A stretch of DNA of 64,000 nucleotides from Dolomitihabitans soli (GTDB lineage Bacteria; Actinomycetota; Actinomycetes; Streptosporangiales; Streptosporangiaceae). The stretch is taken from positions 1 to 64,000 of the forward strand of contig NZ_JAKNTW010000007.1 of the NCBI RefSeq assembly GCF_022213955.1. The letters are read 5' to 3'. Under the pieces are notes generated by a model. That model searched no databases. It was not told the origin of the DNA and saw only the letters and a list, made by a program, of their open reading frames with translations. Positions 8,657 to 23,245 of the stretch are shown piece after piece (within the stretch, counting starts at the first letter, position 1; every line of letters starts with the position of its first letter). A program made the translations under genes and the position numbers.

Positions 8657-9745
8657 ATGTCTTCTCTCACCGGACCCGTGGTCATCATCGGAGCTGGGCA
8701 ATCAGGCATGGCCGCGGCTCACCACGCCCTCCAGGCGGGGCTACGGCCCATCGTGCTGGAGGCCTCCGCCCAGGCGGCCGGGTCCTGGCCGCACTACTAC
8801 GACAGCCTGCGCCTGTTCTCGCCCGCCCGCTACAGCTCACTGCCAGGCATGGCCTTCGGCGGCGACGGCGAGCGTTACCCCCGCCGTGACGAGGTGGTCG
8901 CCTACCTGGAGCGCTACGCCCGCGACCTGTCACGCCTCGGCGCCGAGATCCGCACCGGGGCGCGCGTCAGCGAAGTCGCCGCAGCCGAAGGCGGCAGCTT
9001 CGCCGTCCAGGTGGCCGACGGCGAGGTCCTGGAGGCGCGGAGCGTGATCGCCGCGACCGGCTCCTTCGCCCGCCCTCACCGTCCCGCGCTGACCGGTCAG
9101 GAGAGGTTCACCGGCCAGATCCTGCACGCCGCCGAATACCGCACCCCCGAACCGCTCGCGGATCGGCGCGTGGTCGTGGTCGGCGCGGGCAACTCCGCCG
9201 TGCAGATCGCCTACGAACTGGCCGGGCACGCCCGGGTCACGCTGGCCAGCCGGGACGCGGTCCGCTTTGTCCCGCAGCGGCCGCTGGGCCGCGACGTGCA
9301 CTTCTGGTTCCGCGTGACCGGCTTCGACCGACTGCCGCTGCGCCGCGCCGGTAACCCGCCCACCCAGCCGGTACTCGATCCGGGCCGCTACCGCGAGGCC
9401 TTGCGCGAGGGCAGGCTGGAGCGCCGCCCGATGTTCACCGGCCTGGCCGGAGATCAGGTGGAGTGGGCGGACGGCCGCCGCGAGCGGGTCGACGCCGTAC
9501 TGCTGGCCACCGGCTACCGGCCCGACCTGGACTACCTCGCCCCGCTCGGCGCGCTGGACGCCGGCGGCCTCCCCCGCCACGCCGGCGGCCTGTCGAGCAC
9601 CCACCCCGGACTGGGATATCTCGGGCTGGAATGGCAGCGCACCCCCTCCTCCAACAGCCTGCGCGGCGTCGGAGCCGACGCCCGTCATCTGGTCCGCCGG
9701 CTCGCCGCCCACCTGCGCGCGAGCCGGGCGTCCACGCGCGCCTGA
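8657..9745 (+). CDS. ArsO-like FAD/NADPH-dependent monooxygenase
   Basis: The start is ATG 8657. The 362-aa protein has two Rossmann dinucleotide motifs: FAD-binding VVIIGAGQSGMAAAHHALQAG at residues about 8-28 and NADPH-binding VVVVGAGNSAVQIAYELAG at about 172-190. It also has the flavin-monooxygenase ATG motif (VIAATGSF) and a C-terminal ATGYRPDLDYL. Length and motifs match the CzcO/ArsO flavoproteins found in actinobacterial ars operons. The divergent ArsR-type regulator supports an arsenic-related role, but the substrate is not proven. No arsB, acr3 or arsC is present in the window. A general flavin monooxygenase is the alternative. Confidence 0.75.
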   Translation: MSSLTGPVVIIGAGQSGMAAAHHALQAGLRPIVLEASAQAAGSWPHYYDSLRLFSPARYSSLPGMAFGGDGERYPRRDEVVAYLERYARDLSRLGAEIRTGARVSEVAAAEGGSFAVQVADGEVLEARSVIAATGSFARPHRPALTGQERFTGQILHAAEYRTPEPLADRRVVVVGAGNSAVQIAYELAGHARVTLASRDAVRFVPQRPLGRDVHFWFRVTGFDRLPLRRAGNPPTQPVLDPGRYREALREGRLERRPMFTGLAGDQVEWADGRRERVDAVLLATGYRPDLDYLAPLGALDAGGLPRHAGGLSSTHPGLGYLGLEWQRTPSSNSLRGVGADARHLVRRLAAHLRASRASTRA

Positions 9746-9934
9746 GCGCACGGCCCCTCTGCTTAGCCGACAGCCTGATTTGACAGGTCTCTAATCAGAA
9801 GGGAATCCTACACAGGACTTACTTAGACAAGCTTCAAATCAAGCGTGCGGGCAGAGCCTGGCGACCGGCCTGGCGTAGGCCCGCGCCACCCGCCGGGAGG
9901 GACCCGGCGGTCCAGCCGTAGTGAGGAGGACGTC
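9746..9934. other. Intergenic region before broken flavoprotein gene
   Basis: No gene is seen. An AT-richer stretch at about 9778-9842 may carry a promoter for the following gene. A clear Shine-Dalgarno sequence (GAGGAGG, 9924-9929) precedes the ATG at 9935. Confidence 0.4.
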
Positions 9935-10540
9935 ATGAGTGGATGTTGTGGCCCCGACGCCGTCGAAGCCGACCTGAGCGTCCCGGCCGGACGACCTGCC
10001 GATCGTGGTGATCGGCGCCGGGCCGGTCGGTCTGGCCGCCGCCGCGCACCTGGCCGAGCGCGGCCTGGACTTCCTGGTACTTGAGGCCGGGCGGCAGGTC
10101 GGGGCCTCCGTGGCACGGTGGGGGCACGTGCGGGTGTTCAGCCCGTGGAAGTACAACATCGACGCCGCCGCCCGCCGCCTGCTCACCGCGGCGGGGTGGA
10201 CGGAGCCGGACCCGGAGTGGCTGCCGACCGGTGCCGAGCTGATCGGCGACTACCTCGCCCCGCTGGCGAAGACGTTCGGCGAGCGGGTACGGCTGGGCAC
10301 GCGGGTGACCGCGATCAGCCGCCTCGGCTACGACCGGGTCCGCACCACCGGCCGCGAGCAGGCCCCGTTCCTGATCCATCTGGCAGATGGCCAGGAGATC
10401 ACAGCGCGGGCGGTCGTCGACGCCTCCGGCACCTACACCACACCGAACGTGCTCGGCGCCAGCGGCCTGCCCGCCCAGGGAGAGCAGACGATCTCCATGG
10501 ATCGCAACAGATTCGGATCACCGGTCTCGATCTGCTGCGC
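9935..10540 (+). pseudogene. Frameshifted and truncated ars-type FAD/NAD(P) flavoprotein
   Basis: A strong ribosome site and ATG 9935 begin MSGCCGPDAVEADLS, but the flavoprotein proper continues in another frame: DDLPIVVIGAGPVGLAAAAHL from about 9990, then GASVARWGHVRVFSPWKYNID and DASGTYTTPNVLGASGLP. The homology stops at about 10490, before the second (NADPH) Rossmann motif, where unrelated sequence leading to an ISL3 fragment begins. It therefore has a frameshift near 9985 and a 3' truncation. The family is found with arsR and arsO, so this looks like a decayed second gene of an arsenic operon. Confidence 0.7.
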
Positions 10541-10696
10541 CGGCCACCGCTCAGGCGTCACACTGTTGTCTGCGGTCATCGCCGTTCTCCTTCTTGGAAT
10601 CGTTGCTACGAAGGATCACGCGATGGCCGTTCTCATTTCACGGCGCCACATCTGTTGACCAGGTCAAACCCGTACACCACTCCCGTGGACGCAACC

Positions 10697-10950: not shown

Positions 10951-12702
10951 TCACTGAGCGGCCTCCCAGGCCGTCCACAACCCGGCGTACACACCACCGG
11001 CATCAACCAGCTCTCCGTGGGTGCCGGTCTCGATAATCCGGCCGTGCGCCATCACCATGATCCGGTCGCAGGTCGCTGCTTGGGAGAGACGGTGCGCGAC
11101 TACGACTGCGGTGCGCCCGGCGAGGACAGCATCGGCAGCGCGGTCGAGCTGTCCGGCGTAGGTGGAGCCGGCATCGGCGGTCGCTTCGTCGAGGATCACC
11201 AGATCAGCGTCGGTGAGCAGCAGGCGGGCGAGGGCGAGCTGCTGCGCCTGTGCGTCGGTGAGCGGGTGTCCGCCGACACCTAGCAGGGTGTCCAACCGGT
11301 CGGGGAGAACATCGAGGATCGATGCAGCGCCGGTGGCTTCCAGCGCTGCATGGAGGTCGCGGTCGGTGGCCCCGGGGGCGGCGAGGGTGAGGTTGTCGCG
11401 CAGGGTGCCCGCGAAGACGTGGACCTCCTGGGTGATCATCGCGGTACGGCTGGGGCGAGTCACCTTACCGGCCTCAGGCAGGTGGGTGCCGGTGACCACG
11501 CCGGCGAGCGTGGTCTTGCCCGCCCCGGACACGCCGACGACGGCCACGCGCTGACCGGACGGGATGTCGAGGGTGATGTCGTCGAGCACCCGTGGCCCCT
11601 CGCCGTAACGGAACGAGACCTCGTCGAGCTGTACGGCGGTGCTCGCGGCCTGTGACGGGACATCCGACGAGCTGAACGGAATCGTGACGACCCCGATCAT
11701 GCGGCTCAGCGATGCGAGGGCGGACTGGAGGGTGTCGATGACCAGCAGCAGCTGGTTGACGGGTCCGAGCAGGCGTAGCACGAGCAGCATGGCGGTGGTG
11801 GCGCCGCCGACGGTCGATGCGTTGTGGTCGATGAGGACGAAGCCGACGACGAGTACGGCGGCCAGGCTCAGGCACTCCCCGAGGTTGAGCCGGGCATTGA
11901 GCATGCTCAGCACGGTGCGTGCGCGTAGCGACTGCCCCGCGACGCGCCAGGAGTCCGTCATCACAGCCCGGTGTCGTTGCTCGGTGAGCCCGAAGCCGAG
12001 CACGGTGGCGTAGCCGCGCTGGGACTCGAGGATCTGCTGGGCACGCGCGCTCATCGCCGTGCGCTCGGCGCGGTAGACCCCTGGTCCGGTGCGCAGGTAC
12101 CAGCGCACGGCCAGCACGTAGACCGGCAGCACGACGGCGAAGGCGGCCGCGTAGGGCCATTCCAGTGCCGCGAGCCCGCCCAGCGACACGACGATGGTGA
12201 AGGCGGTGACGGTGAGCACCGGGATCACGGCGGGGGCGGCGTCGGCGACCGCGGTGACGTCGTCGCTGGACCGCGAGATCAGGTCTCCGGTGCCGGCGCG
12301 CTCGACGAGGTGCTGTGGGAGCGTCATCGCGTGGCCCACGAGCTGCTCGCGCAGCGCGGCGAGGATGGAGTGGTAGACGCGGGTGGCGAGCACGATCGTC
12401 AGCGCGGTGCCCGCGGCACCGAGGACTGCCGAGAGCGCCATGACGACCGTGACCGTCAGCACTGTGGCGAGGTCCGCGGTGCCGGCCTGCACGCGGTCGA
12501 CGAGGAATCCGATCGCCCCGGGAACGATCAGGTCGACGCCGGTGCTGACGATCCCCAGCGCCCCGGTCGCGGCGAGCCGGAGCCGGTACCCGTGGCTGAG
12601 CCGCCACACCTCCCTGACCGTCTCGCGGCCGCTCGCGACCGGCAGCCCGGGCAGCCCGGCATCGGAAGCCGCAGTCTCGGGCACGGCGGAGGTGCCGCTC
12701 AC
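10951..12702 (-). CDS. ABC half-transporter (type IV exporter fold), probable siderophore transport
   Basis: The GTG start overlaps the previous gene's stop in a GTGA. The 583-aa protein has an N-terminal transmembrane domain of about six helices (about 35-320) and a C-terminal ATPase with Walker A VGVSGAGKTTLAG, a substituted signature region (VGGHPLTDAQAQQLALARLLL instead of LSGGQ) and Walker B DADLVILDEATAD. The degenerate signature is typical of one half of a heterodimer. Its partner is the gene just upstream. Such pairs in siderophore loci resemble IrtAB or YbtPQ, exporter-fold proteins that import Fe-siderophores; that role is inferred from the operon. Confidence 0.85.
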   Translation of the reverse strand: MSGTSAVPETAASDAGLPGLPVASGRETVREVWRLSHGYRLRLAATGALGIVSTGVDLIVPGAIGFLVDRVQAGTADLATVLTVTVVMALSAVLGAAGTALTIVLATRVYHSILAALREQLVGHAMTLPQHLVERAGTGDLISRSSDDVTAVADAAPAVIPVLTVTAFTIVVSLGGLAALEWPYAAAFAVVLPVYVLAVRWYLRTGPGVYRAERTAMSARAQQILESQRGYATVLGFGLTEQRHRAVMTDSWRVAGQSLRARTVLSMLNARLNLGECLSLAAVLVVGFVLIDHNASTVGGATTAMLLVLRLLGPVNQLLLVIDTLQSALASLSRMIGVVTIPFSSSDVPSQAASTAVQLDEVSFRYGEGPRVLDDITLDIPSGQRVAVVGVSGAGKTTLAGVVTGTHLPEAGKVTRPSRTAMITQEVHVFAGTLRDNLTLAAPGATDRDLHAALEATGAASILDVLPDRLDTLLGVGGHPLTDAQAQQLALARLLLTDADLVILDEATADAGSTYAGQLDRAADAVLAGRTAVVVAHRLSQAATCDRIMVMAHGRIIETGTHGELVDAGGVYAGLWTAWEAAQ

Positions 12703-14459
12703 CGCGCCGTCCTTGAGGGCGCGGGTACGTCGTCAGGCAGCTCGACGACGCGGTCGCAGGCAGCGAGCAGCGCCGGGGTCGAGGCGATCAGCAGCGTCGA
12801 GCGGCCTGCCCGGACACCGCGAAGCCGGCTTGCGATCGTGTGCTCGGTGACCGAGTCGACTGCGGTGGTCGGGTCGTGCAGCACGAGCACCGGCGCGTCA
12901 CTCGCCAGGGCGCGGGCGAGCGCGACCCGCTGGCGCTGGCCGCCCGAGAGTCGGTTGCCGCCCTCGCCGACCGGGACGTCGAGGTCGGCCGCGAAGTCGT
13001 CGCAAGCGGCGGCTCGCACCGCGGCGTCCACCCGCTCGGGCGCGCCCGCGATCACGGCGACGTTGTCGCGGAGTGTGCCGCTGAACAGCGTGGCGCGGTG
13101 CGGCGCGACGGTGACCCGGGAGCGGTACTCGACCGGGGACAGCTCCCGCGCCGCGATCCCGTCGAGCCGCGCCTCGACCCCTCCCTCGGCCCGCGGGTCC
13201 AGCAGCGCCTCGACGACACGGGCGGCGGTCCGGTCGTCGGCGCGCACGCCCACGAGCTCGCCGGGCTCGACCCGGATTGTCACGCCGGGCCCGGAGATGC
13301 TCGGCACGACCACGTCCAGCTCCGGCAGCGCGGTGACCTCCCGCCGGGTCGCGTCATCGGGCTCGGCCGTCGACGTGGCGTTGTCCCGCAGCACGTCGAG
13401 GACACGCGCGGACGAGGCGCGGGCACCGGCGAGATTGGGGATGGACGTGCTCGCGATCGCTTGGATCTGCGGCAGCAGTGCCTGGGTGAGGCCGACGGCG
13501 GTGATCAGCTCGCCGATGCTGAGCTGTCCGTCCACGGCGAACCAGCCCGCCAGCCCCATCACCGCGGCGACGAACGTGCCGCTGACCACGCCCGAGCCCA
13601 CAAGGAACCTCCCCAGCAGGCCCGCGTTGCGCCTGGCGCCGACAAGGGTCTCCTGGCTTGCCTGCCGGTACCGGCTGGTCGCCTCGGCCTCGGCACGCAC
13701 CCCCTTGATCACCCGGTAGCCGGCGACCAGGTCCGTGGCCTGTCCGACCGTGGAGGCCAGCAGCTCCTGGTACTCGCGGGTGTCCCGGGAGAGCCGCTCG
13801 CTGAGCACGCCCATCGACCAGACCGCGACAGGCGCCCCGAACAGCACCACGAGTCCGAGCAGCCAGTGCGTCGCCAGCAGCGATGCCGCGATGAATCCGA
13901 TGGCCGTGATCCTCGAGACCGGGATAATCATCAGGATCACCGCGTTGGACAGGCGCGCGACGTCGTTCGTCATCACCGAGACCACGCTGCCGTCCGGCGC
14001 ACGGGCGGTGCCGCCGACCGAGTGCAGCACGCCCGTGGAGAGGGTGCCGCGGAGTCGGTGCTGCAGTACCTGCACCGCATAGGCGGTCAGCCGCAGCGAG
14101 AGCCTCGCCGTCGACGTCAGCGCGACGTAGAGGGCCACCAGCACGCCGAGCCACAGGACCAGCTGTCCCTCATCCCCGGTCGCCAGGGCCCGGTCGATCG
14201 CGAGTCCCATCACCACCGGGACCGCGGACTCGCCCACCTGCCACACGATCGCCAGCAGCATCGCGGGAACGCTGACCCGCCTCACCGAGAAGATCACGCG
14301 CAGCAGGAACCGGCCCGGGGTGATCCCCGGCCCGGACCCGAACGGCCGAGCATCGAGCGGCTCGGCGGGAGCAAGCAGGAGCACTGGCAGCCGGCGGGTC
14401 AGTGGTCCTCGCCCCAGCCCTGCGGTGTCGGCGCCCGAGAAACGCGAGGAGTTCCTCAC
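12699..14459 (-). CDS. ABC half-transporter (exporter fold), partner of the downstream half-transporter
   Basis: The start at GTG 14459 is supported by GGAG upstream and by overlap with the esterase stop (GTGA). The 586-aa protein has six predicted helices and an ATPase domain. Walker A is degenerate: the expected GxxGxGK loop is replaced by around LVGVRADDRTAARVVEALL, while the signature NRLSGGQRQRVALARAL and Walker B-like APVLVLHDPTTAVD remain, with His-Asp-Pro in place of Asp-Glu-Pro. So this half carries the good signature and a poor P-loop, complementing its partner, a classic asymmetric heterodimer. A role in ferri-siderophore import or siderophore export follows from context. Confidence 0.85.
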   Translation of the reverse strand: MRNSSRFSGADTAGLGRGPLTRRLPVLLLAPAEPLDARPFGSGPGITPGRFLLRVIFSVRRVSVPAMLLAIVWQVGESAVPVVMGLAIDRALATGDEGQLVLWLGVLVALYVALTSTARLSLRLTAYAVQVLQHRLRGTLSTGVLHSVGGTARAPDGSVVSVMTNDVARLSNAVILMIIPVSRITAIGFIAASLLATHWLLGLVVLFGAPVAVWSMGVLSERLSRDTREYQELLASTVGQATDLVAGYRVIKGVRAEAEATSRYRQASQETLVGARRNAGLLGRFLVGSGVVSGTFVAAVMGLAGWFAVDGQLSIGELITAVGLTQALLPQIQAIASTSIPNLAGARASSARVLDVLRDNATSTAEPDDATRREVTALPELDVVVPSISGPGVTIRVEPGELVGVRADDRTAARVVEALLDPRAEGGVEARLDGIAARELSPVEYRSRVTVAPHRATLFSGTLRDNVAVIAGAPERVDAAVRAAACDDFAADLDVPVGEGGNRLSGGQRQRVALARALASDAPVLVLHDPTTAVDSVTEHTIASRLRGVRAGRSTLLIASTPALLAACDRVVELPDDVPAPSRTAR

Positions 14460-15652
14460 GCTTGGCTCCGGTCCCTGCTCCTGAGCGGGAAGCACCAGAG
14501 CAAGGCATCGGCAAAGATTCCTCGCCACCATGCGTAGTCGTGTCCGCCGGCGAACTCTCTGTAGAGGGTGTCGTAGCCCTTCCCGGTGAGCACATGGTCC
14601 AACCAGCGACTGTGGGTGTTCGAGCTCTCCAGCTCACCAACGTCGTGGAAGATGCGGATCGGTGCCGTTTCTGCGGCCAGGTAGTCGGCGATCAGTGTCG
14701 GTACGGGGGTGCGGCGCAGCAGCTCACCTGACCCGGTGCCCCACGTGAGGTCAGGGTGGTACCCGCACGACGGGGACTGGAGGATGGCGTTGCCGAACGT
14801 CGTCGGGTGGTGGAGCGCTGTCCAGCCAGCGCACAGACCGCCGAAGCTCTCGCCGGCCAGCGCAACGTCACCGGGGTCCCGCGAGAGCGGATACCGGTGG
14901 TGGAGCCACGGCAGCAGTTCCTGGACCAGCATCTGGGAGAACGCCGAGTTGCAGAGCAGCTCTTTGTCGCGCTGCAGTGCGGGCTGACCGACGAGGACCA
15001 CCACGCAGGGTCGGACCAGTCCCGCCCGGACCAGGGCGTCACGAACGCTCGGCGCGCTGTGGTCCGGCGTCCCGTCCAGGTGGATCACGAAGGGCAGTGC
15101 GCTCTCGTCCGAGAACTCTCCCGCGGGCATCGAGACCCAGATGCGGCGTTCGTCTCCCAGGAGCTCGCTCGCCAGCACGGCAGTTTCCACTGCCGGGGCC
15201 GGCCGCGCTTCGGCCTGATCGAGCCAGGGCAACGGCGCTGCGTCGGGCAGCACTGCCACCGAGGCCCCGGAGAACCGCTCCACCGAGCACTCCGAGAACC
15301 TCGGTGGTGGGTTGAACGGGTCCGGAACCTGTTCGCCCTCACCCGTCGGCCCACGTCGTGCGAACACGTACGAGAAGCGCAGGTCGGAACGTATCCGCAG
15401 GGTGAGAACGCGGAACGGCGCCCCCGCCACCGAGGCGAACTCCGTGTCGATCGGGTTGAAGCCGATTTTGGGGCCGATCACCACCGAGAGGGTGACCGTC
15501 GTGTCGTCTCCGGGCTCGTCGACGAACGTCACCTCCACCTCGTCCGCAGAGACCCGCTCGACAAGCGGTGCACCCATCTCCTCGAGATGTCGTCTGAATC
15601 TTTCCGGGCTCCACTCACCGGTCGACAACTTCTCGACAAACGGATCAGCCAT
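14456..15652 (-). CDS. Enterochelin esterase-like ferric-siderophore hydrolase (Fes family)
   Basis: The 398-aa protein has the Fes N-terminal domain (about 1-170) and a D-family alpha/beta-hydrolase domain with nucleophile Ser in LAGESFGGLCAG and a late catalytic His in EFAGGHDYAWWRG. No signal peptide is seen, so it is cytoplasmic. It would cleave ester linkages of an imported tri-catecholate or similar ferric siderophore to free iron. The ATG at 15652 overlaps the 3' end of the ATPase gene, and its own stop overlaps the next start, so translation is coupled. It is strong evidence that the operon handles an ester-linked siderophore. Confidence 0.87.
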   Translation of the reverse strand: MADPFVEKLSTGEWSPERFRRHLEEMGAPLVERVSADEVEVTFVDEPGDDTTVTLSVVIGPKIGFNPIDTEFASVAGAPFRVLTLRIRSDLRFSYVFARRGPTGEGEQVPDPFNPPPRFSECSVERFSGASVAVLPDAAPLPWLDQAEARPAPAVETAVLASELLGDERRIWVSMPAGEFSDESALPFVIHLDGTPDHSAPSVRDALVRAGLVRPCVVVLVGQPALQRDKELLCNSAFSQMLVQELLPWLHHRYPLSRDPGDVALAGESFGGLCAGWTALHHPTTFGNAILQSPSCGYHPDLTWGTGSGELLRRTPVPTLIADYLAAETAPIRIFHDVGELESSNTHSRWLDHVLTGKGYDTLYREFAGGHDYAWWRGIFADALLWCFPLRSRDRSQA

Positions 15653-16499
15653 TTCTCGCGCTCTCTACGTCGGTATCATCAGCGGACCTCTGTCGGGTTC
15701 GTTCGCGGCCGAGCGGCACCACCTGAGGGCTGCCGGCCACCGGATCGGGCATCACCAGGCAGCGCAGACCGAACACCTCCTCGACCAGCTCGGCCGTGAC
15801 GACCTCGTCCGGAGTGCCCTCGGCGACCACGGCGCCGTCCTTCATGGCGATCAGGTGGGTGCCGTAGCGGGCAGCGTGGTTCAGGTCGTGCAGTACGGCG
15901 ACCAGGGTGTGGCCGACGTGGTGCAGGTCGGTGAACAGCTCCATCAGCTCGATCTGGTAGGTGATGTCGAGGAAGGTGGTCGGTTCATCGAGCAGCATGA
16001 TGTCGGTGTGCTGCGCGAGCGCCATCGCCACCCACACGCGCTGGCGCTGCCCGCCCGACAGCTCGTCCACCAGGCGCCCGGACAGGTCGGTGACCGAGGT
16101 CTGGTGCATCGCCCTGAGCACGGCCTGCTCGTCGTCCTCGGTCCACTGCCGGATGAACCCCTGGTGGGGGTACCGTCCCCGGGCCACCAGGTCGGCGACG
16201 GTGATCCCGTCCGGGGCGATCGAGGTCTGCGGCAGCAGTCCGACCCGCCGCGCCACCTCTTTGGTCTTGTAGGAGTTGATGTCGGCACCGTCGAGGACGA
16301 CCTGCCCGCCCGACGGCTTCAGCAGTCGGGACAGGCCGCGCAGCAGGGTGGACTTGCCGCACGCGTTCGGGCCGACGATGACCGTGAACGACTCGTCGGG
16401 GATCGCCACTGAGAGGCGCTCGGAGATGATCCGCTTGTCGTAGCCGATCGTCGCCGACTCCACACGAAGGCGCGCGGTGTCGGGCGGGGTCGCGCTCAT
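15645..16499 (-). CDS. FecE-type ferric-siderophore ABC transporter ATP-binding protein
   Basis: The start ATG 16499 overlaps the permease stop (ATGA). The 284-aa ATPase has Walker A VGPNACGKSTLLRG, Q-loop LLPQTS, signature DELSGGQRQRVWVAMALAQ, Walker B IMLLDEPTTFLD and switch His in AVLHDLNHA. This is the FepC/FhuC/FecE class that powers FecCD permeases. The two permease genes and a binding protein are immediately upstream in the same operon. Confidence 0.93.
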   Translation of the reverse strand: MSATPPDTARLRVESATIGYDKRIISERLSVAIPDESFTVIVGPNACGKSTLLRGLSRLLKPSGGQVVLDGADINSYKTKEVARRVGLLPQTSIAPDGITVADLVARGRYPHQGFIRQWTEDDEQAVLRAMHQTSVTDLSGRLVDELSGGQRQRVWVAMALAQHTDIMLLDEPTTFLDITYQIELMELFTDLHHVGHTLVAVLHDLNHAARYGTHLIAMKDGAVVAEGTPDEVVTAELVEEVFGLRCLVMPDPVAGSPQVVPLGRERTRQRSADDTDVESARNG

Positions 16500-17554
16500 A
16501 GGCGTCTCCTGGCTTCGGTGAACAGCAGGTATCCGAGGTAGCCGCCGCCGAGCACGACGGTGACAATGCCGACCGGCAGCGGGGTGGGGGCGACGTGCTG
16601 GGCGAGGTAGTCCGACGCCAGGCATAGCAGCGCGCCGACGAAGGCGGCGGGGGCGAGGGTGGTCCCGGCGGTGCGGGCGAGTCGGCGTCCGATCTGCGGG
16701 GCGACCAGGGAGATGAACGCGATCGGCCCCGACGCGGCCGTGACCGTCGCCGTCAGCGCCACTCCCACCAGGATCAGGGCGAGGCGTGCGGGCGAGACCC
16801 GTACCCCTTGCGAGGCGGCCGCGTCGTCACCCAGCTCCATCTGCCGCATCGGCCGGCTCAACATCCCGGCCAGCAGCAGGAGTACGGCGATGCAGGCGCC
16901 GCCGATGACGACCTGCTCCCAGGACACGCCGTTGAGCGACCCGGCACCCCAAGCGGCCGCGGACATCGCCTGGTCCAGGTCGGCCTTGAGGATCAGCCAG
17001 GTGTTGAGCGACCCGAGCATCGCCGAGACGCCGATGCCGACGATGATCAGCCGGAACCCCTGCACCCCTCGTCGGTGGGCGAGCACGTACACGGCCACGG
17101 CGGTGGCCATCCCGCCCAGCAACGCCCCGCCGACCAGCTGCACGTAGGTGCCGTTGACGACCAGGATCACGATCAGCGCGCCGGTGTAGGAGCCTTGGGA
17201 GAACCCGATGATGCCGGGGTCGGCGAGAGGGTTGCGCAACAGTGACTGGAAGACCGCCCCGCTCACCCCCAGAGCTGCGCCGAACACCAGCGCCGCGGCC
17301 ACCCGGGGCAGCCGCCACTCGACCACGATGTCGTGGACGATGCCGGTATCCCGGCCGGTCAGTGCGGAGAGCACCTGCCCGGGGCTCAGCGGGTACGAGC
17401 CGGTCATCAGCGCGAGCACCGCCGTACCGGCGACCGCGACCGCGAGCAGCGCGCAGACGACGACCGAGCGCCACTGGAGCCGTACCGCGATCCGCCGGCG
17501 CCGCAGTACCAGCACCCGCCGCCCGAAGTCCACCCGCGGAATGTGCGTGCTCAT
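16496..17554 (-). CDS. FecCD-family iron-siderophore permease subunit (second)
   Basis: The 352-aa integral membrane protein has about nine to ten hydrophobic segments and FecCD hallmarks: RLPRVAAALVFGAALGVSGAVFQSLLRNPLADPGIIG near residues 80-115 and GPIAFISLVAPQIGRRL toward the C-terminus. Its start overlaps the preceding permease gene. Together the two permeases form the heterodimeric channel receiving substrate from the lipoprotein. Confidence 0.93.
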   Translation of the reverse strand: MSTHIPRVDFGRRVLVLRRRRIAVRLQWRSVVVCALLAVAVAGTAVLALMTGSYPLSPGQVLSALTGRDTGIVHDIVVEWRLPRVAAALVFGAALGVSGAVFQSLLRNPLADPGIIGFSQGSYTGALIVILVVNGTYVQLVGGALLGGMATAVAVYVLAHRRGVQGFRLIIVGIGVSAMLGSLNTWLILKADLDQAMSAAAWGAGSLNGVSWEQVVIGGACIAVLLLLAGMLSRPMRQMELGDDAAASQGVRVSPARLALILVGVALTATVTAASGPIAFISLVAPQIGRRLARTAGTTLAPAAFVGALLCLASDYLAQHVAPTPLPVGIVTVVLGGGYLGYLLFTEARRRL

Positions 17555-18594
17555 AGTCCGCTCGCCTTCTTCCGCCGCACCAGCGCGACGAGAACGGGAG
17601 CGCCGACGAAGGCGGTGACGATACCCACGGGGATCTCGCTGGGTCTCATCACGATGCGGCCGAGGATGTCGGAGACCAGCAGCAGGCTCGGGGCGAGGAG
17701 GATGCTGTAGGCGAAGATCCAGCGTTGGTGCGGGCCGACGATCCAGCGGGCCACGTGCGGCACCATGAGTCCGACGAATGCGATGGGTCCGGCGATCGCG
17801 GTGGCGCCACCGGCCAGGAGGGTGAGTGCGATCACCGCAAGCACACGGGTGCGTACCAACCGGACCCCTTGGGCGACCGCCAGCTCGTCACCCAGAGCCA
17901 GAGCGTTGAGTGGGCCCGACACCGCGAAGGCCAGGATGAGTGCCACCGCGAAGAACGGCAGGATCGGCCACACGACCTCGAGCGGGCGACCCACGATCGA
18001 CCCGGCGTTCCAGTACCGCATCGCGTCGAAGGCGTCCGGGTTGGTCAACTGGAGCGCCTCTCTGGCGCCGCCGAGCACGGCGCCGACGCAGACCCCGGTG
18101 AGCACTATGACCACCGGCGAGGAGCCCTGCCGTGTCGACCCAAGGGCGAGCACCAGGAGCGTGACGATCAGTGCCCCCGCGAACGCGAACCACATGTAGC
18201 CCTGGGCGTCGCGGACGCCGAGCAAGCCCACGGCGACCGTCACCGCGAAGGACGCACCGGCATTGACGCCGAGGATACCCGGATCGGCCAAGGGATTGCG
18301 GGTGAGCGCCTGGATCAACGCGCCCGACAAACCGAGTGCGACGCCGACGACCAGACCCACGATCGTGCGCGGCAGCCGGAAGTCGCGGATCGCGAACTGG
18401 TCGATGCCGGCAGAGGAGCGGAACAGCGCGTCCCACACCACTGACGGCGCGATCGCCGTCGACCCGATCATGACACTCAGCACCAGCAGGACCACCAGCA
18501 CCACCAGCGCGACGACCAGGCCGAGCAGACGACGACGCGGTCCGGGCACCGTCTCGGTGCCCGGACCGTCCTGCCGCAGGGCGAGGGCTGTCAC
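17551..18594 (-). CDS. FecCD-family iron-siderophore permease subunit (first)
   Basis: GTG 18594 overlaps the TGA of the binding-protein gene (GTGA), indicating translational coupling. The 347-aa polytopic protein has the family motifs FRLPRTIVGLVVGVALGLSGALIQALTRNPLADPGILG and GPIAFVGLMVPHVARW. It pairs with the second permease gene downstream. Confidence 0.93.
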   Translation of the reverse strand: MTALALRQDGPGTETVPGPRRRLLGLVVALVVLVVLLVLSVMIGSTAIAPSVVWDALFRSSAGIDQFAIRDFRLPRTIVGLVVGVALGLSGALIQALTRNPLADPGILGVNAGASFAVTVAVGLLGVRDAQGYMWFAFAGALIVTLLVLALGSTRQGSSPVVIVLTGVCVGAVLGGAREALQLTNPDAFDAMRYWNAGSIVGRPLEVVWPILPFFAVALILAFAVSGPLNALALGDELAVAQGVRLVRTRVLAVIALTLLAGGATAIAGPIAFVGLMVPHVARWIVGPHQRWIFAYSILLAPSLLLVSDILGRIVMRPSEIPVGIVTAFVGAPVLVALVRRKKASGL

Positions 18595-19601
18595 TTCTTG
18601 GCTGGGAGGGTCGCCAGTGCGCTGTCGAGCGAGTCCAGGTACCGGATGACGGGCCCGTAGGAGTTGTTGCTGGGGCAGAAGACTCCCAGCGCACGACCGG
18701 AGCTCACGGCAGGCAGCGCCTTCCAGGTGTTGGTCTCGACCACCGGCACGAAGGGCTCTGTCGGCTGGCCCGCGGCGTCGACGGGGTAGGTGATCACGTC
18801 GTACTTGGACAGCTCACCGATCTGCTCGAACGGCAAGGACTCGTAGGCCAAGGGGTCCTTGCCCTCGGCCGCCTCAGGGAGGTCCAGGCCGACGTCGTCC
18901 CGGGCAATCTCGGAGCAACCGATGTCCGCGATGTAGAACGTTCCGGGATCGCTCCAGTCTCCGCGGGAGACGTCGACGAACGAGGTGCCGTCGATGACCT
19001 TGCCGTAGGTCTCCTGAATCTTGGCGACCTTTTCCTTGAACTCCGCCTTCTGCCGGCTGAGCGCATCCGCGACGTTGCCGGCCTCCGCGATGGCGTCGGC
19101 GAAGGCCTTCCACTCGGTGTCGAGCCCCCAGAGCACGGTCGGGGCGATCGCCTCGAGTCGCTTGCCGATCTTGTCCCAGTCATTCGAGTGGAACTGGACC
19201 AGGATGAGGTCCGGCTTGAGGCTGGCGAGCTTCTCGAGGTCTACCTCACCACCGCTGCTGCCGACGATCTCGGCTGCCTCGTACACAGTCCTCTGTTCCT
19301 TCGGCAGCACGTCGAGGTCGGAGTCGGACACCTCGGTGACGCCCACTGGCTTGCCACCCAGATCGATGAAGGGGAGGTTCGTGTTGCCGATCGTGACGAT
19401 CCGCTGGGGGGCGAAGGGAACCTCGATGGTGCCGTTCTCGGCCTTGACGCTGCGGGTCTCGGCGGCCTCGACGCTGGGGGTCTCCACGGCCTTGTCGCCG
19501 GTGTCGCCGCCGTCACTGCCGCAGGCGGTGAGGACGAGCGACGCGCTCATCAGTGCGGCAGCAAGGGCTGCGCCGCGCCTCATCAGGGAGGTGTTGCTCA
19601 T
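18591..19601 (-). CDS. Siderophore-binding lipoprotein of ABC transporter
   Basis: The 336-aa product starts with a lipoprotein signal: Arg-rich n-region, hydrophobic core and lipobox LTAC followed by GSDGGDTGD. The mature part is a class III periplasmic-binding (TroA/FhuD-like) fold: APQRIVTIGNTNLPFIDLGGKPVG, LASLKPDLILVQ and WDKIGKRLEAIAPTVLWG are typical. It would be anchored outside the membrane and deliver Fe(III)-siderophore to the FecCD permeases. It follows the SIP-fusion gene by 42 bp. Confidence 0.92.
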   Translation of the reverse strand: MSNTSLMRRGAALAAALMSASLVLTACGSDGGDTGDKAVETPSVEAAETRSVKAENGTIEVPFAPQRIVTIGNTNLPFIDLGGKPVGVTEVSDSDLDVLPKEQRTVYEAAEIVGSSGGEVDLEKLASLKPDLILVQFHSNDWDKIGKRLEAIAPTVLWGLDTEWKAFADAIAEAGNVADALSRQKAEFKEKVAKIQETYGKVIDGTSFVDVSRGDWSDPGTFYIADIGCSEIARDDVGLDLPEAAEGKDPLAYESLPFEQIGELSKYDVITYPVDAAGQPTEPFVPVVETNTWKALPAVSSGRALGVFCPSNNSYGPVIRYLDSLDSALATLPAKK

Positions 19602-19643
19602 GGGTGTTCGCTTCTTTCTCTGTCTTCCCGGGGGTGCAGGGGT

Positions 19644-21509
19644 TCAGTCGGCGGTGGAGCGGAGGAGCTCGTGGACGGTGGCGCCCAGGCCGACGGTGTG
19701 CGCCGACCTGCGCGTGAGGCCGGCCCGGGCGATGACGGCGTCCAGCTCCGCCGCAGTGCGAAGGCCGGAGCCGTGGCAGACCAGGCCGATCAGGTCTTCC
19801 TCGCCGTCGTGCTCGTCGAGGTCGTCGGTGTCGAAGACCTCCTCGATCAGCAGCACCCGTCCGCCGGGGACGAGGTTCTCGGCCGCCCGGCGTAGTGCGT
19901 GAGCAGCGTCGGCGTCGGGCAGGGTCTTGAAGGCGCGGCTGATGAGCACGGCGTCGGCTGCTGGGCTGGGCTCGAAGACGGACTGCTCCAGCACGCTGAC
20001 CCGCGTGCGTTGCCGCTCGTCGGGAATCGTGGCGGGCAGGTCGCGGCGCAGCCAGTCGGCCTGAGCGGGCAGGGCGCAGATCGTCACGCGCAGGCTCTCG
20101 TGGGCTGCGACGTACTCACGGGCGTGGGCGCCGGCACCACCGGAGTGGATCACCAGGTGCTGGACTCCGGCGAGCAGGCCGGACGTGGCGATCGGTTCGG
20201 CCAGTGCGGGCTGGAACTTCGCCAGGCGCTCCAGGTGACGGTCCTCGTAGTCCTGCTCGGCTCGCACGTCGGCAAAGGTCTGGCCGGTGACCGAGGCGTA
20301 GGCGGGCTGGCCGGTGCGGACCGACTCCGTGAGGCCGTGGATCCCGAGCATCTCGCGACCGACCACCCCAGCGGAGTGGAGCCGGTCGGCGATGAACTCG
20401 AGAGTGAGGACATCGCCGACCGGCGTCAGGGCGTAGTGACACGGTTCTGTCTCGGTCACCACGTCCAGGGTGTGCAGGTAACGCAGCAGCTTGCCCAGAG
20501 CGCGCTCGTCGGCGCCGGCCTTGGCGGCCAGCTCGGTCACGCTGGTCACGCCGCGGGAGACCAGATCGGGAACGCCCAGCTCGACGGCAGTGCGGATCGC
20601 GATCGGCGCGACAAGCTCGGTCAGGTCGTGGAGCTTCTGGAACGGGGTGACTGTCCTGTCCGGGTCGGGTACCGCCCCGTCGGTCTCCAGGGCGACGACC
20701 TCGGAGCGACGCCAGTAGCCGGCGAAGTCGATGTCCTCCTTGGGCACGCCACGGTCCTCGACCAGGTGCCGGCGGATGTCCCGGACGGCCGTGTGCTCGC
20801 CGGCCAGCCACGCGAACGCCTGGCCCGGCCACCACTCCGCACTGCGGACGGCCTCGGTGAGCAGCGACACGGTCCCGGCCGTTACGCCGGGGCGGACCAG
20901 CCACGTCACGTCCACCCCTAGCAGCTCGCGCAGCTCCTGGCGGTGGGCGTCCTCAGCGATCTCGATGAACACCTGCGCCCGGGCGTCGGGCGGGAGCTCG
21001 TCGAGCAGGCGGCCGATCGCGGGGAGTGCGGTGTCGTCGCCTGCCACGAGCAACCAGTCGGCGCCGGCCGGGAACGCCTTGGACGTGCTCGGGCCGCTGA
21101 GGTGGATCCGGTCACCCGGCTGGGTGCGATAGGCCCACGTCGTTCCCGCGCCCACCCCGTGCTTGACGAAGTCCACGTCCAGCTCGCCGGCCTCGGGGTC
21201 CCACCGGCGAACCGTGTAGGCCCTCGACAGCGGTCGAGGATCCTTGGGCACGATCAACTTGGCCTCGCCCTGGACCGGGAGCACCGGGTCGCGCTGACCT
21301 GGGTACGGGAAGTAGAACCCGAGGTCGTCGTCGAAGCCCGAGGACTCGAAGGCCGGCCGTACGAAGCCGTCCGCAGTGGTGAACGCACCCAACTGTTCGC
21401 CGCTCAGCGTGACCCGCCGCATCCCCGGGGTGATGTCGACAGTCCGGACCACCTCGACCTCACGCAGGGTCGGCGGGTGCACGGTCAGCCGGCGCGAGGT
21501 CTTGGGCAT
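19644..21509 (-). CDS. Fusion of siderophore-interacting flavin reductase (SIP) and O-methyltransferase-like domain
   Basis: The 621-aa product combines two units. Residues about 10-275 are a ViuB/YqjH-type siderophore-interacting protein: MRRVTLSGEQL, PLSRAYTVRRWDPEAGELDVDFVKHG for flavin binding, GPGS-like LSGPSTSKAFPAGADWLLVAGDDTALPAI for NAD(P)H, and the C-terminal YWRRS. Residues about 290-615 look like a dimerising O-methyltransferase (ELVAPIAIRTAVELGVPDLVS winged-helix part, then a Rossmann part with VLISRAFKTLPDADAAHALRRAAENLVPGGRVLLIEE). The SAM-binding motif I is degenerate (LVIHSGGAGAHA, lacking the usual acidic residue). SIP proteins release iron by reducing Fe(III)-siderophores. 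The fused domain's role is unknown; it may modify or just bind the siderophore. It is the first gene of the iron operon, 72 bp downstream of an iron box. Confidence 0.85.
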   Translation of the reverse strand: MPKTSRRLTVHPPTLREVEVVRTVDITPGMRRVTLSGEQLGAFTTADGFVRPAFESSGFDDDLGFYFPYPGQRDPVLPVQGEAKLIVPKDPRPLSRAYTVRRWDPEAGELDVDFVKHGVGAGTTWAYRTQPGDRIHLSGPSTSKAFPAGADWLLVAGDDTALPAIGRLLDELPPDARAQVFIEIAEDAHRQELRELLGVDVTWLVRPGVTAGTVSLLTEAVRSAEWWPGQAFAWLAGEHTAVRDIRRHLVEDRGVPKEDIDFAGYWRRSEVVALETDGAVPDPDRTVTPFQKLHDLTELVAPIAIRTAVELGVPDLVSRGVTSVTELAAKAGADERALGKLLRYLHTLDVVTETEPCHYALTPVGDVLTLEFIADRLHSAGVVGREMLGIHGLTESVRTGQPAYASVTGQTFADVRAEQDYEDRHLERLAKFQPALAEPIATSGLLAGVQHLVIHSGGAGAHAREYVAAHESLRVTICALPAQADWLRRDLPATIPDERQRTRVSVLEQSVFEPSPAADAVLISRAFKTLPDADAAHALRRAAENLVPGGRVLLIEEVFDTDDLDEHDGEEDLIGLVCHGSGLRTAAELDAVIARAGLTRRSAHTVGLGATVHELLRSTAD

Positions 21510-21580
21510 GCGGGGAACTCAACTTTCCGGTCGCTTCGAGGGCAGAGGCAGCGCGCCGGCATCAGGAGGGCGCGCATTGG

Positions 21581-21599
21581 TAAGGTTAGGCAAACCTCA
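21581..21599. promoter_or_regulatory. DmdR/IdeR/DtxR-type iron box
   Basis: The 19-mer TAAGGTTAGGCAAACCTCA matches the consensus TTAGGTTAGGCTAACCTAA at 16 of 19 positions, including both inner half-sites. It lies between the divergent SIP-fusion operon and AraC-type gene, 72 bp and 39 bp from their starts. Repression of both promoters by an iron-loaded DtxR-family protein is expected. Confidence 0.85.
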
Positions 21600-21637
21600 C
21601 CTGCAATAGTGTGCGCAGACTGCCGTATGGTTAGGAC

Positions 21638-23245
21638 GTGGTGGTGCCCTCGTCGTTCGCCGCGGGCGCCGGCGACCCGCCGCCGATTCCGGACGCGCGG
21701 TTGGGTTCGACAGATGCGCCCGTTCGACCGCTGCTGCTCTGGGTTCGCGCTGGCGAGGCGCACGTGCGCCTCGACGGCGGGCCGGTGCTCCACCTCAAGG
21801 CTGGCGAAGGCGCCTGGATTCCCGCAGATGGCTGGGCAGAGCGGGCGATCACCACTGAGCCAGGCACTGTCGCCTTCCCGCTGTGGCCCCACGCGAGTGT
21901 CGGCGCTTGGGGGTTGTCGGAACTGACGCGGTTCGACGTTCCCAGCGGCTGGCAGGACTGGTTGATCCAGCTCTTCAACCTGCAGGTCACTCCGTTCAGC
22001 GGCCGCGGGTACTCCCCCGAGGCGATCGAGGAGCTCCTTCGGCGTCCTGGCTCGCGCTCGCCGGTGCCCGTCGAGGTCGGGCGAAATCCGACCTCAGAGG
22101 GATTCGCCTCGCCGGCGATGCCGCAAGCCCGCGGCGCCAGAGCAGTCGCCGAGGAACTGATTCGCGACCCCGCGCTTGACCTCACGGTCGAGCAATGGGC
22201 GTCGCGGGTGCTCTCCAGCGCGCGCACCCTTCGCCGTGACTTCCTCGCCGACACCGCGCTCACGTTCGAGCAGTGGCGGCTGCTCTGCCGGCTCGGCGCC
22301 GCCGTGGAGTTCCTCGCTGCCGGTTACGACGTGGACCAGGTGGCCGCTCGAGTGGGCTTCGCCAGCCGCAACGGCCTCACGCGGGCCTTCAAGGGACGGT
22401 TCGGACTGACCCCCCACGAGTTCGGACGGGAGCTCTCCGCCCGACCCGGCGCCGGTGGGCTGACGCAACGGGCAGCGGCGGCACGGCAGACCGACGACCT
22501 GATCCGGATGATGCGCAAGATGGACACTCCCGCTGCGCCTGAGATGCTGCCCGCGGCCAGCACGCCGTCGCACACCAACGACATCCACGTCCTCAGCTGG
22601 ATGTATCGAGGCAGCGGGTACCTTGACATCGGCGACCGACGCTACGAGCGGGAGCGAGGGGTGGCGACCTGGATCCCTGCAGAAATGGAGCATGTCACCG
22701 GCCTCCGCGAGAACTCCGTCTCCCTGCCGCTGGGCAACGCGAGTACCGGCGACCTCCAACTGACAGTGCCGCTGCAGGTGCGGTTCTCGCCTGCGTGGGA
22801 CGACTACTTGATGTTCTGCTCGATCAGCGCCCGGTCCGGACTGCGTCCCGACGACCACAACCCCCGCCACATCCTCGACCTGTTCGCGGAACAGGTTGCC
22901 GCGCAGCGAGCGCTGTCGGTGCCGATGCCCACCAATCCGCGCGCGCGTGCTGTCGCGATGGAGTGCTTGCGTCGTATCGGCGAGCCTGGCGGGACGCATG
23001 ATGTTGATGTCCGCGCTGAGATCCACCGTGCCTTCCGCGACGAGACAGGTATGACACTGGGTCGCTGGCGCTATGCCGCCCGCATGCGCATCGCTCGCGA
23101 CCTGCTCGCCGGGGGCGCCCCGCCCAGCGCCGTCGCGCGCCGGATCGGGTACGCCCACCTACCCACGTTCAGCGCGGCCTTCTCCCGCTTCCACGGACTG
23201 TCTCCGCGCGACTACCAGCAGCGCGAGTCTGAGCGGAACCAGTAG
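21638..23245 (+). CDS. AraC-type regulator with two tandem sensor-HTH modules
   Basis: The protein is about 535 aa and contains two complete AraC modules in one chain. Each has a cupin-like sensor (RAGEAHVRLDGGPVLHLKAGEGAWIPADGW; and YRGSGYLDIGDRRYERERGVATWIPAEMEH) followed by an AraC double helix-turn-helix (first around FEQWRLLCRLGAAVEFLA..RNGLTRAFKGRFGLTPHEF; second around RWRYAARMRIARDLLAGG..YAHLPTFSAAFSRFHGLSPRDYQQ). Three in-frame GTG codons at 21638, 21641 and 21644 compete as starts; 21644 has the best spacing from AGGA. It diverges from the siderophore operon across an iron box, so it is probably its ligand-responsive activator (as for AraC regulators of siderophore loci, which sense the ferri-siderophore). 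Confidence 0.85.
   Translation: MVVPSSFAAGAGDPPPIPDARLGSTDAPVRPLLLWVRAGEAHVRLDGGPVLHLKAGEGAWIPADGWAERAITTEPGTVAFPLWPHASVGAWGLSELTRFDVPSGWQDWLIQLFNLQVTPFSGRGYSPEAIEELLRRPGSRSPVPVEVGRNPTSEGFASPAMPQARGARAVAEELIRDPALDLTVEQWASRVLSSARTLRRDFLADTALTFEQWRLLCRLGAAVEFLAAGYDVDQVAARVGFASRNGLTRAFKGRFGLTPHEFGRELSARPGAGGLTQRAAAARQTDDLIRMMRKMDTPAAPEMLPAASTPSHTNDIHVLSWMYRGSGYLDIGDRRYERERGVATWIPAEMEHVTGLRENSVSLPLGNASTGDLQLTVPLQVRFSPAWDDYLMFCSISARSGLRPDDHNPRHILDLFAEQVAAQRALSVPMPTNPRARAVAMECLRRIGEPGGTHDVDVRAEIHRAFRDETGMTLGRWRYAARMRIARDLLAGGAPPSAVARRIGYAHLPTFSAAFSRFHGLSPRDYQQRESERNQ

What the first reader, a model, noticed from the sequence alone, without database searches (positions are those of the whole stretch)
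19644..21509. Siderophore reductase fused to a methyltransferase-like domain with a degenerate SAM motif
The first approximately 275 residues are a standard SIP flavin reductase, the last approximately 330 an O-methyltransferase fold with its dimerisation helix domain but LVIHSGGAGAHA in place of a normal motif I with its acidic residue. A fused MT could methylate a catechol or hydroxamate to lower iron affinity after reduction, or could be a catalytically dead siderophore-binding module. I know of no described function for this pairing.
Basis: partly seen in the sequence, partly recalled or inferred. Interest (0 to 1): 0.65.

Follow-up and report, generated by a model that had tools for sequence, protein, structure and literature searches.

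The report
Siderophore reductase fused to dead methyltransferase
This is an iron-uptake enzyme carrying a methyltransferase-shaped second half that, in almost every relative examined, has lost the residues expected to bind the methyl donor yet is still held under selection, which suggests the old enzyme was repurposed as a binding or pairing module rather than used for methylation.

Summary
Window 19644-21509 (minus strand) is one uninterrupted 621-aa gene. Residues 1-268 are a siderophore-interacting flavin reductase (SIP; nearest solved structure FscN). Residues 289-618 have the DnrK-type O-methyltransferase (OMT) fold, after a disordered 20-aa linker. It is not a missed stop: the fusion occurs in more than 30 actinobacterial loci and in 14 of 395 sampled genomes of the class.

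The methyltransferase half is degenerate across the family. The motif-I acid is Asp/Glu in 25/25 free OMTs but Ile/Val/Leu in 22/22 fusions; the ribose acid is mostly Ala; the catalytic His-Asp-Trp is lost. Its dN/dS (about 0.25) equals that of the reductase half. One divergent fusion (L012) keeps the motif.

The gene heads a conserved iron-box operon: AraC-type regulator, FepB/D/G/C-like importer, usually an enterochelin-esterase-like protein, two ABC half-transporters. The window's genome shows no dihydroxybenzoate-activating enzyme, so it probably uses siderophores made by others.

Best reading: a ferric-catecholate reductase with a SAM-independent pseudo-methyltransferase for dimerisation and siderophore handling. 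Loss of the SAM site is well supported by sequence; the replacement function is inferred. New variant of a known kind; I found no description of it in the open-access papers searched.

The parts
19644..21509 (-). SIP-pseudo-OMT fusion gene, 621 aa
   Evidence: Single ORF; Pfam; conserved full-length in more than 30 loci
20706..21509 (-). Residues 1-268: siderophore-interacting flavin reductase half; FAD motif R96-x-Y98-T99-x-R101, NAD(P)H-side motif G157-D158...P163-A164; ends GYWRR
   Evidence: Pfam; FscN 4yhb Z 30.1; motif residues invariant in A1 apart from R96, which is 20/23 in fusions
20646..20705 (-). Residues 269-288: variable linker, low model confidence
   Evidence: pLDDT under 50 at 267-286; highest median dN/dS of the protein, 0.41
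20340..20645 (-). Residues 289-390: OMT dimerisation domain
   Evidence: Pfam PF08100 E 4.8e-11; helical in the model
19647..20339 (-). Residues 391-621: lid and Rossmann part of the degenerate OMT
   Evidence: Pfam PF00891 E 2.5e-15; DnrK Z 31.9
20121..20156 (-). Residues 452-463 LVIHSGGAGAHA: degenerate SAM motif I (Asp to Ile454, Gly to Ser456)
   Evidence: Alignment with DnrK, 25 free OMTs and 22 fusions
21581..21599 (.). Iron box (DmdR/IdeR/DtxR-type operator), 71 bp upstream of the fusion start, between it and the divergent AraC gene
   Evidence: Only place in the window that matches the pattern; 3 overlapping matches versus 0.12 expected by chance; comparable sites, usually about 65-130 bp upstream of the start, in most relatives
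21638..23245 (+). Divergent regulator with two AraC-type HTH regions, 535 aa
   Evidence: HTH_18 matched in two stretches; conserved beside the fusion
18591..19601 (-). FepB-like siderophore-binding lipoprotein
   Evidence: Peripla_BP_2; PRK10957 and PRK11411 matches below their cut-offs
17551..18594 (-). FepD-like permease
   Evidence: NF007760 E 7e-107
16496..17554 (-). FepG-like permease
   Evidence: NF007759 E 2.5e-109
15645..16499 (-). FepC-like ATPase (probable start at 16499, inside the longer ORF)
   Evidence: NF007606 E 7.6e-110
14456..15652 (-). Enterochelin-esterase (Fes)-like protein
   Evidence: NF007758 E 6e-42, below its curated cut-off; PF00756 over cut-off
12699..14531 (-). 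ABC half-transporter (membrane plus nucleotide-binding domain)
   Evidence: PF00664 and partial PF00005; conserved in the operon
10951..12702 (-). ABC half-transporter partner
   Evidence: PF00664 and full-length PF00005; conserved in the operon

Best explanation
The gene encodes a cytoplasmic ferric-catecholate reductase whose C-terminal half is a pseudo-methyltransferase. Proposed steps: iron starvation lifts repression at the iron box; the FepBDGC-like importer brings in a ferric catecholate siderophore made by another organism; the flavin half reduces Fe(III) to Fe(II) with NAD(P)H; the Fes-like esterase, where present, cuts the ligand. The OMT half no longer binds SAM or methylates. It is retained as a dimerisation scaffold and probably as an aromatic-ligand pocket that holds the catecholate or its fragments near, or gates access to, the flavin site. 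Shown here by sequence: fusion, fold, loss of the expected SAM and catalytic residues, purifying selection, operon, iron box. Inferred: iron reduction, catecholate specificity, dimerisation, ligand binding.
For: Motif-I acid is D/E in 25/25 free OMTs versus I/V/L in 22/22 fusions; the ribose acid is D/E in 25/25 versus A in 15/22 (acid kept in 3); catalytic His is H in 21/25 versus 0/22; Trp is W in 24/25 versus 0/22. More divergent fusions are more degenerate still, some almost invisible to Pfam but matched by profile comparison at 99.7%. Median dN/dS is 0.244 for the MT core, 0.249 for the SAM region and 0.261 for the SIP half. FAD and NAD(P)H motifs of the SIP half are invariant or nearly so. 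Most near-family loci share the FepBDGC, Fes and ABC operon; most of the more distant fusions whose surroundings were read also lie beside Fep-type uptake genes. Iron box. G396 carries the fusion about 14 kb from a dihydroxybenzoate-AMP-ligase-like gene in an NRPS cluster, whereas G000 has only background matches to that ligase family (191 bits versus a cut-off of 723). YqjH, a SIP, acts on Fe(III)-triscatecholates (PMC8068687). OMTs of this family dimerise through the N-terminal helical domain (PMC4501126).
Against: No binding or activity data. Former SAM-pocket positions are not significantly more conserved than the rest of the domain (mean entropy 0.78 versus 0.91, permutation p 0.15), so a re-used pocket is not demonstrated. 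The motif-I glycines at 458 and 460 persist in the near family. L012 keeps the motif, so at least one fusion may still bind SAM. The interdomain arrangement is not resolved (pTM 0.53).
Confidence: 0.6

Rival explanations
1. The OMT half is only a dimerisation or stability scaffold and binds no ligand.
For: The OMT dimerisation domain is recognisable by Pfam in the near family. SAM-pocket positions are not singled out by conservation. Free SIPs of the same clade end at GYWRR and do without the module.
Against: The Rossmann part is as constrained as the SIP half (dN/dS 0.244) and holds strongly conserved, lineage-specific residues (W486, R488-R489, D565-E566-H567) that a bare scaffold would not obviously need.
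Confidence: 0.22
2. The OMT half is a SAM-independent enzyme acting on the siderophore or its fragments, as other OMT-fold proteins have become pericyclases.
For: SAM-independent pericyclases with a SAM-binding fold are known (PMC10491745). New residues are well conserved at the former active site, such as K528 in the near family. The closest structures include RdmB and TamK, which do not methylate.
Against: K528 is not kept across the fusion family (G, A, E, S elsewhere). The Arg that starts decarboxylation in DnrK and RdmB is Ile574. No substrate is suggested by context beyond the siderophore.
Confidence: 0.12
3. An active methyltransferase that methylates the catechol after reduction to lower its iron affinity.
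For: OMT fold with high confidence. Motif-I glycines at 458 and 460 are kept in the near family. L012, a divergent fusion beside Fep-type genes, keeps DVGGGTG, the ribose Glu and HDW.
Against: Motif-I acid, ribose acid and catalytic His are lost in the window protein and nearly all relatives.
Confidence: 0.05
4. Two independent genes or a pseudogene read as one, without function.
For: Some relatives are decayed: L070 keeps only the first 140 residues, L066 lacks the N-terminus and an internal stretch.
Against: Full-length open frame in more than 30 loci; dN/dS about 0.25.
Confidence: 0.01

Closest known systems
FscN of the fuscachelin cluster, Thermobifida fusca (PDB 4yhb), SIP subgroup II
   Same: SIP half: 38-40% identity, Z 30.1
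   Different: FscN is about 270 aa and has no C-terminal module; here about 340 more residues follow
YqjH, ferric-triscatecholate reductase of E. coli
   Same: Same SIP family; acts on catecholates (PMC8068687), the substrate class inferred here
   Different: No OMT module (own knowledge); no activity shown for the window protein
DnrK / NcsB1 / CalO6 O-methyltransferases
   Same: Same fold and same dimerisation, lid and Rossmann order; DnrK and NcsB1 28-31% identity, Z 30-32
   Different: Motif-I acid, ribose acid and catalytic His-Asp-Trp lost; fused to a reductase
RdmB 10-hydroxylase and TamK 10-decarboxylase
   Same: Methyltransferase relatives that no longer methylate (PMC9976750, PMC10491745)
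   Different: Both still bind SAM, and use an Arg (DnrK R303) that is Ile574 here
Corynebacterium variabile sii/siu gene clusters
   Same: SIP genes with AraC-type regulators and DtxR sites (PMC3219685); C. variabile has an interrupted homologue of this fusion (L069)
   Different: The word methyltransferase does not occur in that paper's main text

Membership tests
SIP flavin reductases (PF08021 + PF04954) | Both Pfam domains over cut-off | tested here: met
   93.7 and 134.1 bits versus 23 and 26.3
SIP flavin reductases (PF08021 + PF04954) | FAD RxYTxR and NAD(P)H-side GD..ALPA motifs | tested here: met
   Y98, T99, R101, G157, D158, P163, A164 invariant in A1; also conserved in free SIPs
SIP flavin reductases (PF08021 + PF04954) | NAD(P)H-dependent reduction of a ferric siderophore | not testable with these tools
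   Needs biochemistry
SIP subgroup I versus II | Extra C-terminal helix (I) or none (II) | tested here: inconclusive
   SIP half ends GYWRR then a disordered linker and the OMT module; closest to FscN, named subgroup II in PMC11965169, but the module could play the helix's part
Methyltransf_2 / DnrK O-methyltransferases | Fold with dimerisation domain | tested here: met
   PF00891 and PF08100 over cut-off; DnrK Z 31.9 over 332 residues
Methyltransf_2 / DnrK O-methyltransferases | SAM motif I with acid, and ribose-binding acid after strand 2 | tested here: not met
   Ile454 and Ala479, against D/E in 25/25 free OMTs
Methyltransf_2 / DnrK O-methyltransferases | Catalytic His in the His-Asp-Trp motif | tested here: not met
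   Lys528-Thr529-Leu530; the rule is not absolute, as DnrK itself has Leu here
RdmB / TamK non-methylating branch | SAM binding kept; Arg equivalent to DnrK R303 | tested here: not met
   SAM residues lost and Ile574 at the Arg position; SAM binding itself not measured
DmdR/IdeR/DtxR iron regulon | 19-bp iron box in the promoter | tested here: met
   21581-21599; at most one match in shuffled windows; similar site in most relatives. Regulator binding not tested
Enterobactin-type catecholate uptake | FepBDGC-like importer and Fes-like esterase together | tested here: met
   matches lie below NCBIfam equivalog cut-offs, so the exact siderophore is not fixed

The most novel reading that the evidence does not exclude
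The former methyltransferase has become a SAM-independent, siderophore-handling domain: it binds the catecholate or its fragments and presents it to, or takes the product from, the flavin site, making this an undescribed class of two-module siderophore reductases that arose by decay of an active fusion, of which L012 is a surviving motif-intact form.
Probability: 0.4. Interest if true: 0.65.

Novelty: new variant of a known kind. Interest (0 to 1): 0.5.

Why it matters
How iron is taken from tightly binding catecholate siderophores, and how the spent ligand is handled, is incompletely known. A selected, family-wide pseudo-enzyme attached to the reductase would be a new part in that step. It also gives an evolutionary series, from a motif-intact fusion (L012) to forms that Pfam barely sees (L083, L086, L088), for asking how an enzyme loses its cofactor and keeps a job. 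In the two plasmid records where most of the protein matched, the gene is annotated only as a SIP-domain or siderophore-interacting protein, so the module is easily overlooked.

Tried and rejected
Missed stop or two genes: rejected, one open frame conserved in more than 30 loci. Drift towards a pseudogene: rejected, dN/dS about 0.25 in all domains. Adenine-binding Asp to Ser510 as a sign of decay: dropped, because 12 of 25 free OMTs also have Ser there. Re-used SAM pocket inferred from conservation: not significant. Independent origin of L012: not settled; its SIP half falls in the 98* clade that holds all fusions plus five free SIPs, while its OMT half sits with free OMTs in a tree where the fusion group has only 62/83 support. 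One genome search failed and was repeated with a smaller sample; it found no second motif-intact fusion among the matches listed. Eight literature searches were run and I found no description of this pairing in the results I read; only open-access PMC papers are held. Interdomain geometry could not be judged, as no error matrix or multimer run was available.

Full report
What is there. Window 19644-21509 on the minus strand is a single 621-codon open frame without internal stops. Pfam places FAD_binding_9 at residues 19-142, SIP at 150-268, the OMT dimerisation domain at 296-369 and Methyltransf_2 at 392-598, all over their curated cut-offs. By sequence the nearest solved structures are FscN (4yhb) for the first half and DnrK (1tw2, 5eeg) for the second. 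The AlphaFold2 model has mean pLDDT 85.5, with residues 267-286 under 50. Structure comparison gives DnrK Z 31.9 for residues 282-619 and FscN Z 30.1 for residues 4-271.

It is not unique and not an artefact. A scan of named genomes found 36 loci encoding relatives. Most carry full-length fusions at 38-97% identity, in genera such as Streptomyces, Acrocarpospora, Actinomadura, Frigoribacterium, Parafrankia, Nocardioides, Kribbella, Solirubrobacter, Leucobacter and Corynebacterium. In an even sample of 395 genomes of the class, 14 carry a SIP half followed by an OMT-like half: 11 recognised by simple sequence comparison, and three (G187, G319, G464) whose second half is too divergent for that but matches the fusion OMT profile at 99.7% probability, better than it matches free OMTs. 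Five free SIP rows of the same SIP clade belong to one genus code (f26, g93); those translated (L087, L090, L091) end exactly at GYWRR, the domain boundary.

The SAM site. Aligned with DnrK, the motif-I Asp is Ile454, the first motif glycine is Ser456 and the ribose-binding acid is Ala479; the catalytic triplet His-Asp-Trp is Lys-Thr-Leu at 528-530. Over the family the contrast is sharp. The motif-I acid is D or E in 25 of 25 free OMTs and I, V or L in 22 of 22 fusions. The ribose acid is D or E in 25 of 25 versus A in 15, G in 2, a gap in 2 and an acid in 3 of 22. The His is present in 21 of 25 versus none of 22, the Trp in 24 of 25 versus none. The Asp-to-Ser change at 510 is not informative, since 12 of 25 free OMTs have Ser. 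One divergent fusion, L012, keeps DVGGGTG, the ribose Glu and HDW and lies next to FepB-, FepD- and FepC-like genes. Loss of SAM binding is therefore strongly indicated for the window protein but has not been measured.

Selection. Pairwise dN/dS over 16 orthologues has medians of 0.261 for the SIP half, 0.267 for the dimerisation domain, 0.244 for the OMT core, 0.249 for the former SAM region and 0.408 for the linker. The degenerate half is as constrained as the reductase. Former SAM-pocket positions are slightly but not significantly more conserved than the rest of the core (p 0.15), so a re-used pocket is a hypothesis, not a result.

Origin. The SIP halves of all 23 fusions tested fall in one starred clade (98) together with the five free SIPs. 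The OMT halves lie on one side of a weakly supported branch (62/83), with L012 joined to the free OMTs. One fusion followed by loss of SAM binding is the simplest account, but a separate fusion for L012 is not excluded.

Context. Downstream on the same strand lie genes for a FepB-like binding protein, FepD- and FepG-like permeases, a FepC-like ATPase, a Fes-like esterase and two ABC half-transporters; a regulator with two AraC-type HTH regions is divergent. This order recurs in most near-family loci, with the esterase missing from several. Most of the more distant fusions whose surroundings were read also sit beside Fep-type genes. An iron box lies at 21581-21599, and similar sites recur upstream of most relatives. 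In G396 the fusion is next to a FepB-like gene and an NRPS, with a dihydroxybenzoate-AMP-ligase-like gene about 14 kb away. The window's own genome has only background matches to that ligase family (191 bits against a cut-off of 723), so it probably uses siderophores made by others.

Function. The SIP half keeps its FAD and NAD(P)H motifs. The related YqjH releases iron from Fe(III)-triscatecholates (PMC8068687), so reduction of ferric catecholates is the likely activity. [quoted passage not shown] Relatives that no longer methylate are known: RdmB and TamK, which still bind SAM (PMC9976750, PMC10491745), and SAM-independent pericyclases with a SAM-binding fold. In one classification of SIPs an extra C-terminal helix marks subgroup I and may hinder access to the flavin (PMC11965169), so a module at that end could plausibly gate the site. 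I therefore favour a pseudo-methyltransferase used for dimerisation and ligand handling.

Novelty. I read the outputs of eight literature searches and found no account of a SIP-OMT fusion. One search returned no paper and the others returned between 1 and 19. The library holds only open-access PMC papers, so a description elsewhere is possible. The plasmid records with near-full matches annotate the gene only by its SIP part. I rate it a new variant of a known kind.

Noticed in passing
window 21638-23245: The divergent regulator has two AraC-type HTH regions in one 535-aa protein, a doubled architecture; its homologues lie near the fusion in most relatives.
   Followed up: partly
window 12699-14531: The first ABC half-transporter lacks the start of the nucleotide-binding domain profile (Pfam match begins at position 38 of 137) and reads GVRADDRTAARV where a Walker A would be expected, while its partner at 10951-12702 matches the whole profile. 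By eye it looks like a degenerate-site pair.
   Followed up: no
window 10951-23245: The operon is 87-98% identical in protein to copies in Acrocarpospora, Actinomadura and Streptomyces phaeochromogenes (L036, L042, L037), and the SIP half of the fusion has dS of only 0.06-0.09 to them; this suggests recent horizontal transfer, but no housekeeping gene was compared.
   Followed up: partly
window 8657-10658: Two neighbouring plus-strand ORFs both match pyridine-nucleotide/FAD oxidoreductase families; they could be halves of one flavin monooxygenase.
   Followed up: no
L070:8001-8423: In a Rhodococcus genome only the first 140 residues of the fusion remain before a stop, followed directly by sequence like the ABC partner: apparently a decayed copy of the operon.
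   Followed up: partly
L066:8001-9431: Tessaracoccus caeni has a second, shortened copy lacking the first 81 residues and about 60 residues of the former SAM region.
   Followed up: no
L069:8001-9879: In the Corynebacterium variabile assembly the homologous region is split over two frames; sequencing error or real decay was not distinguished.
   Followed up: no
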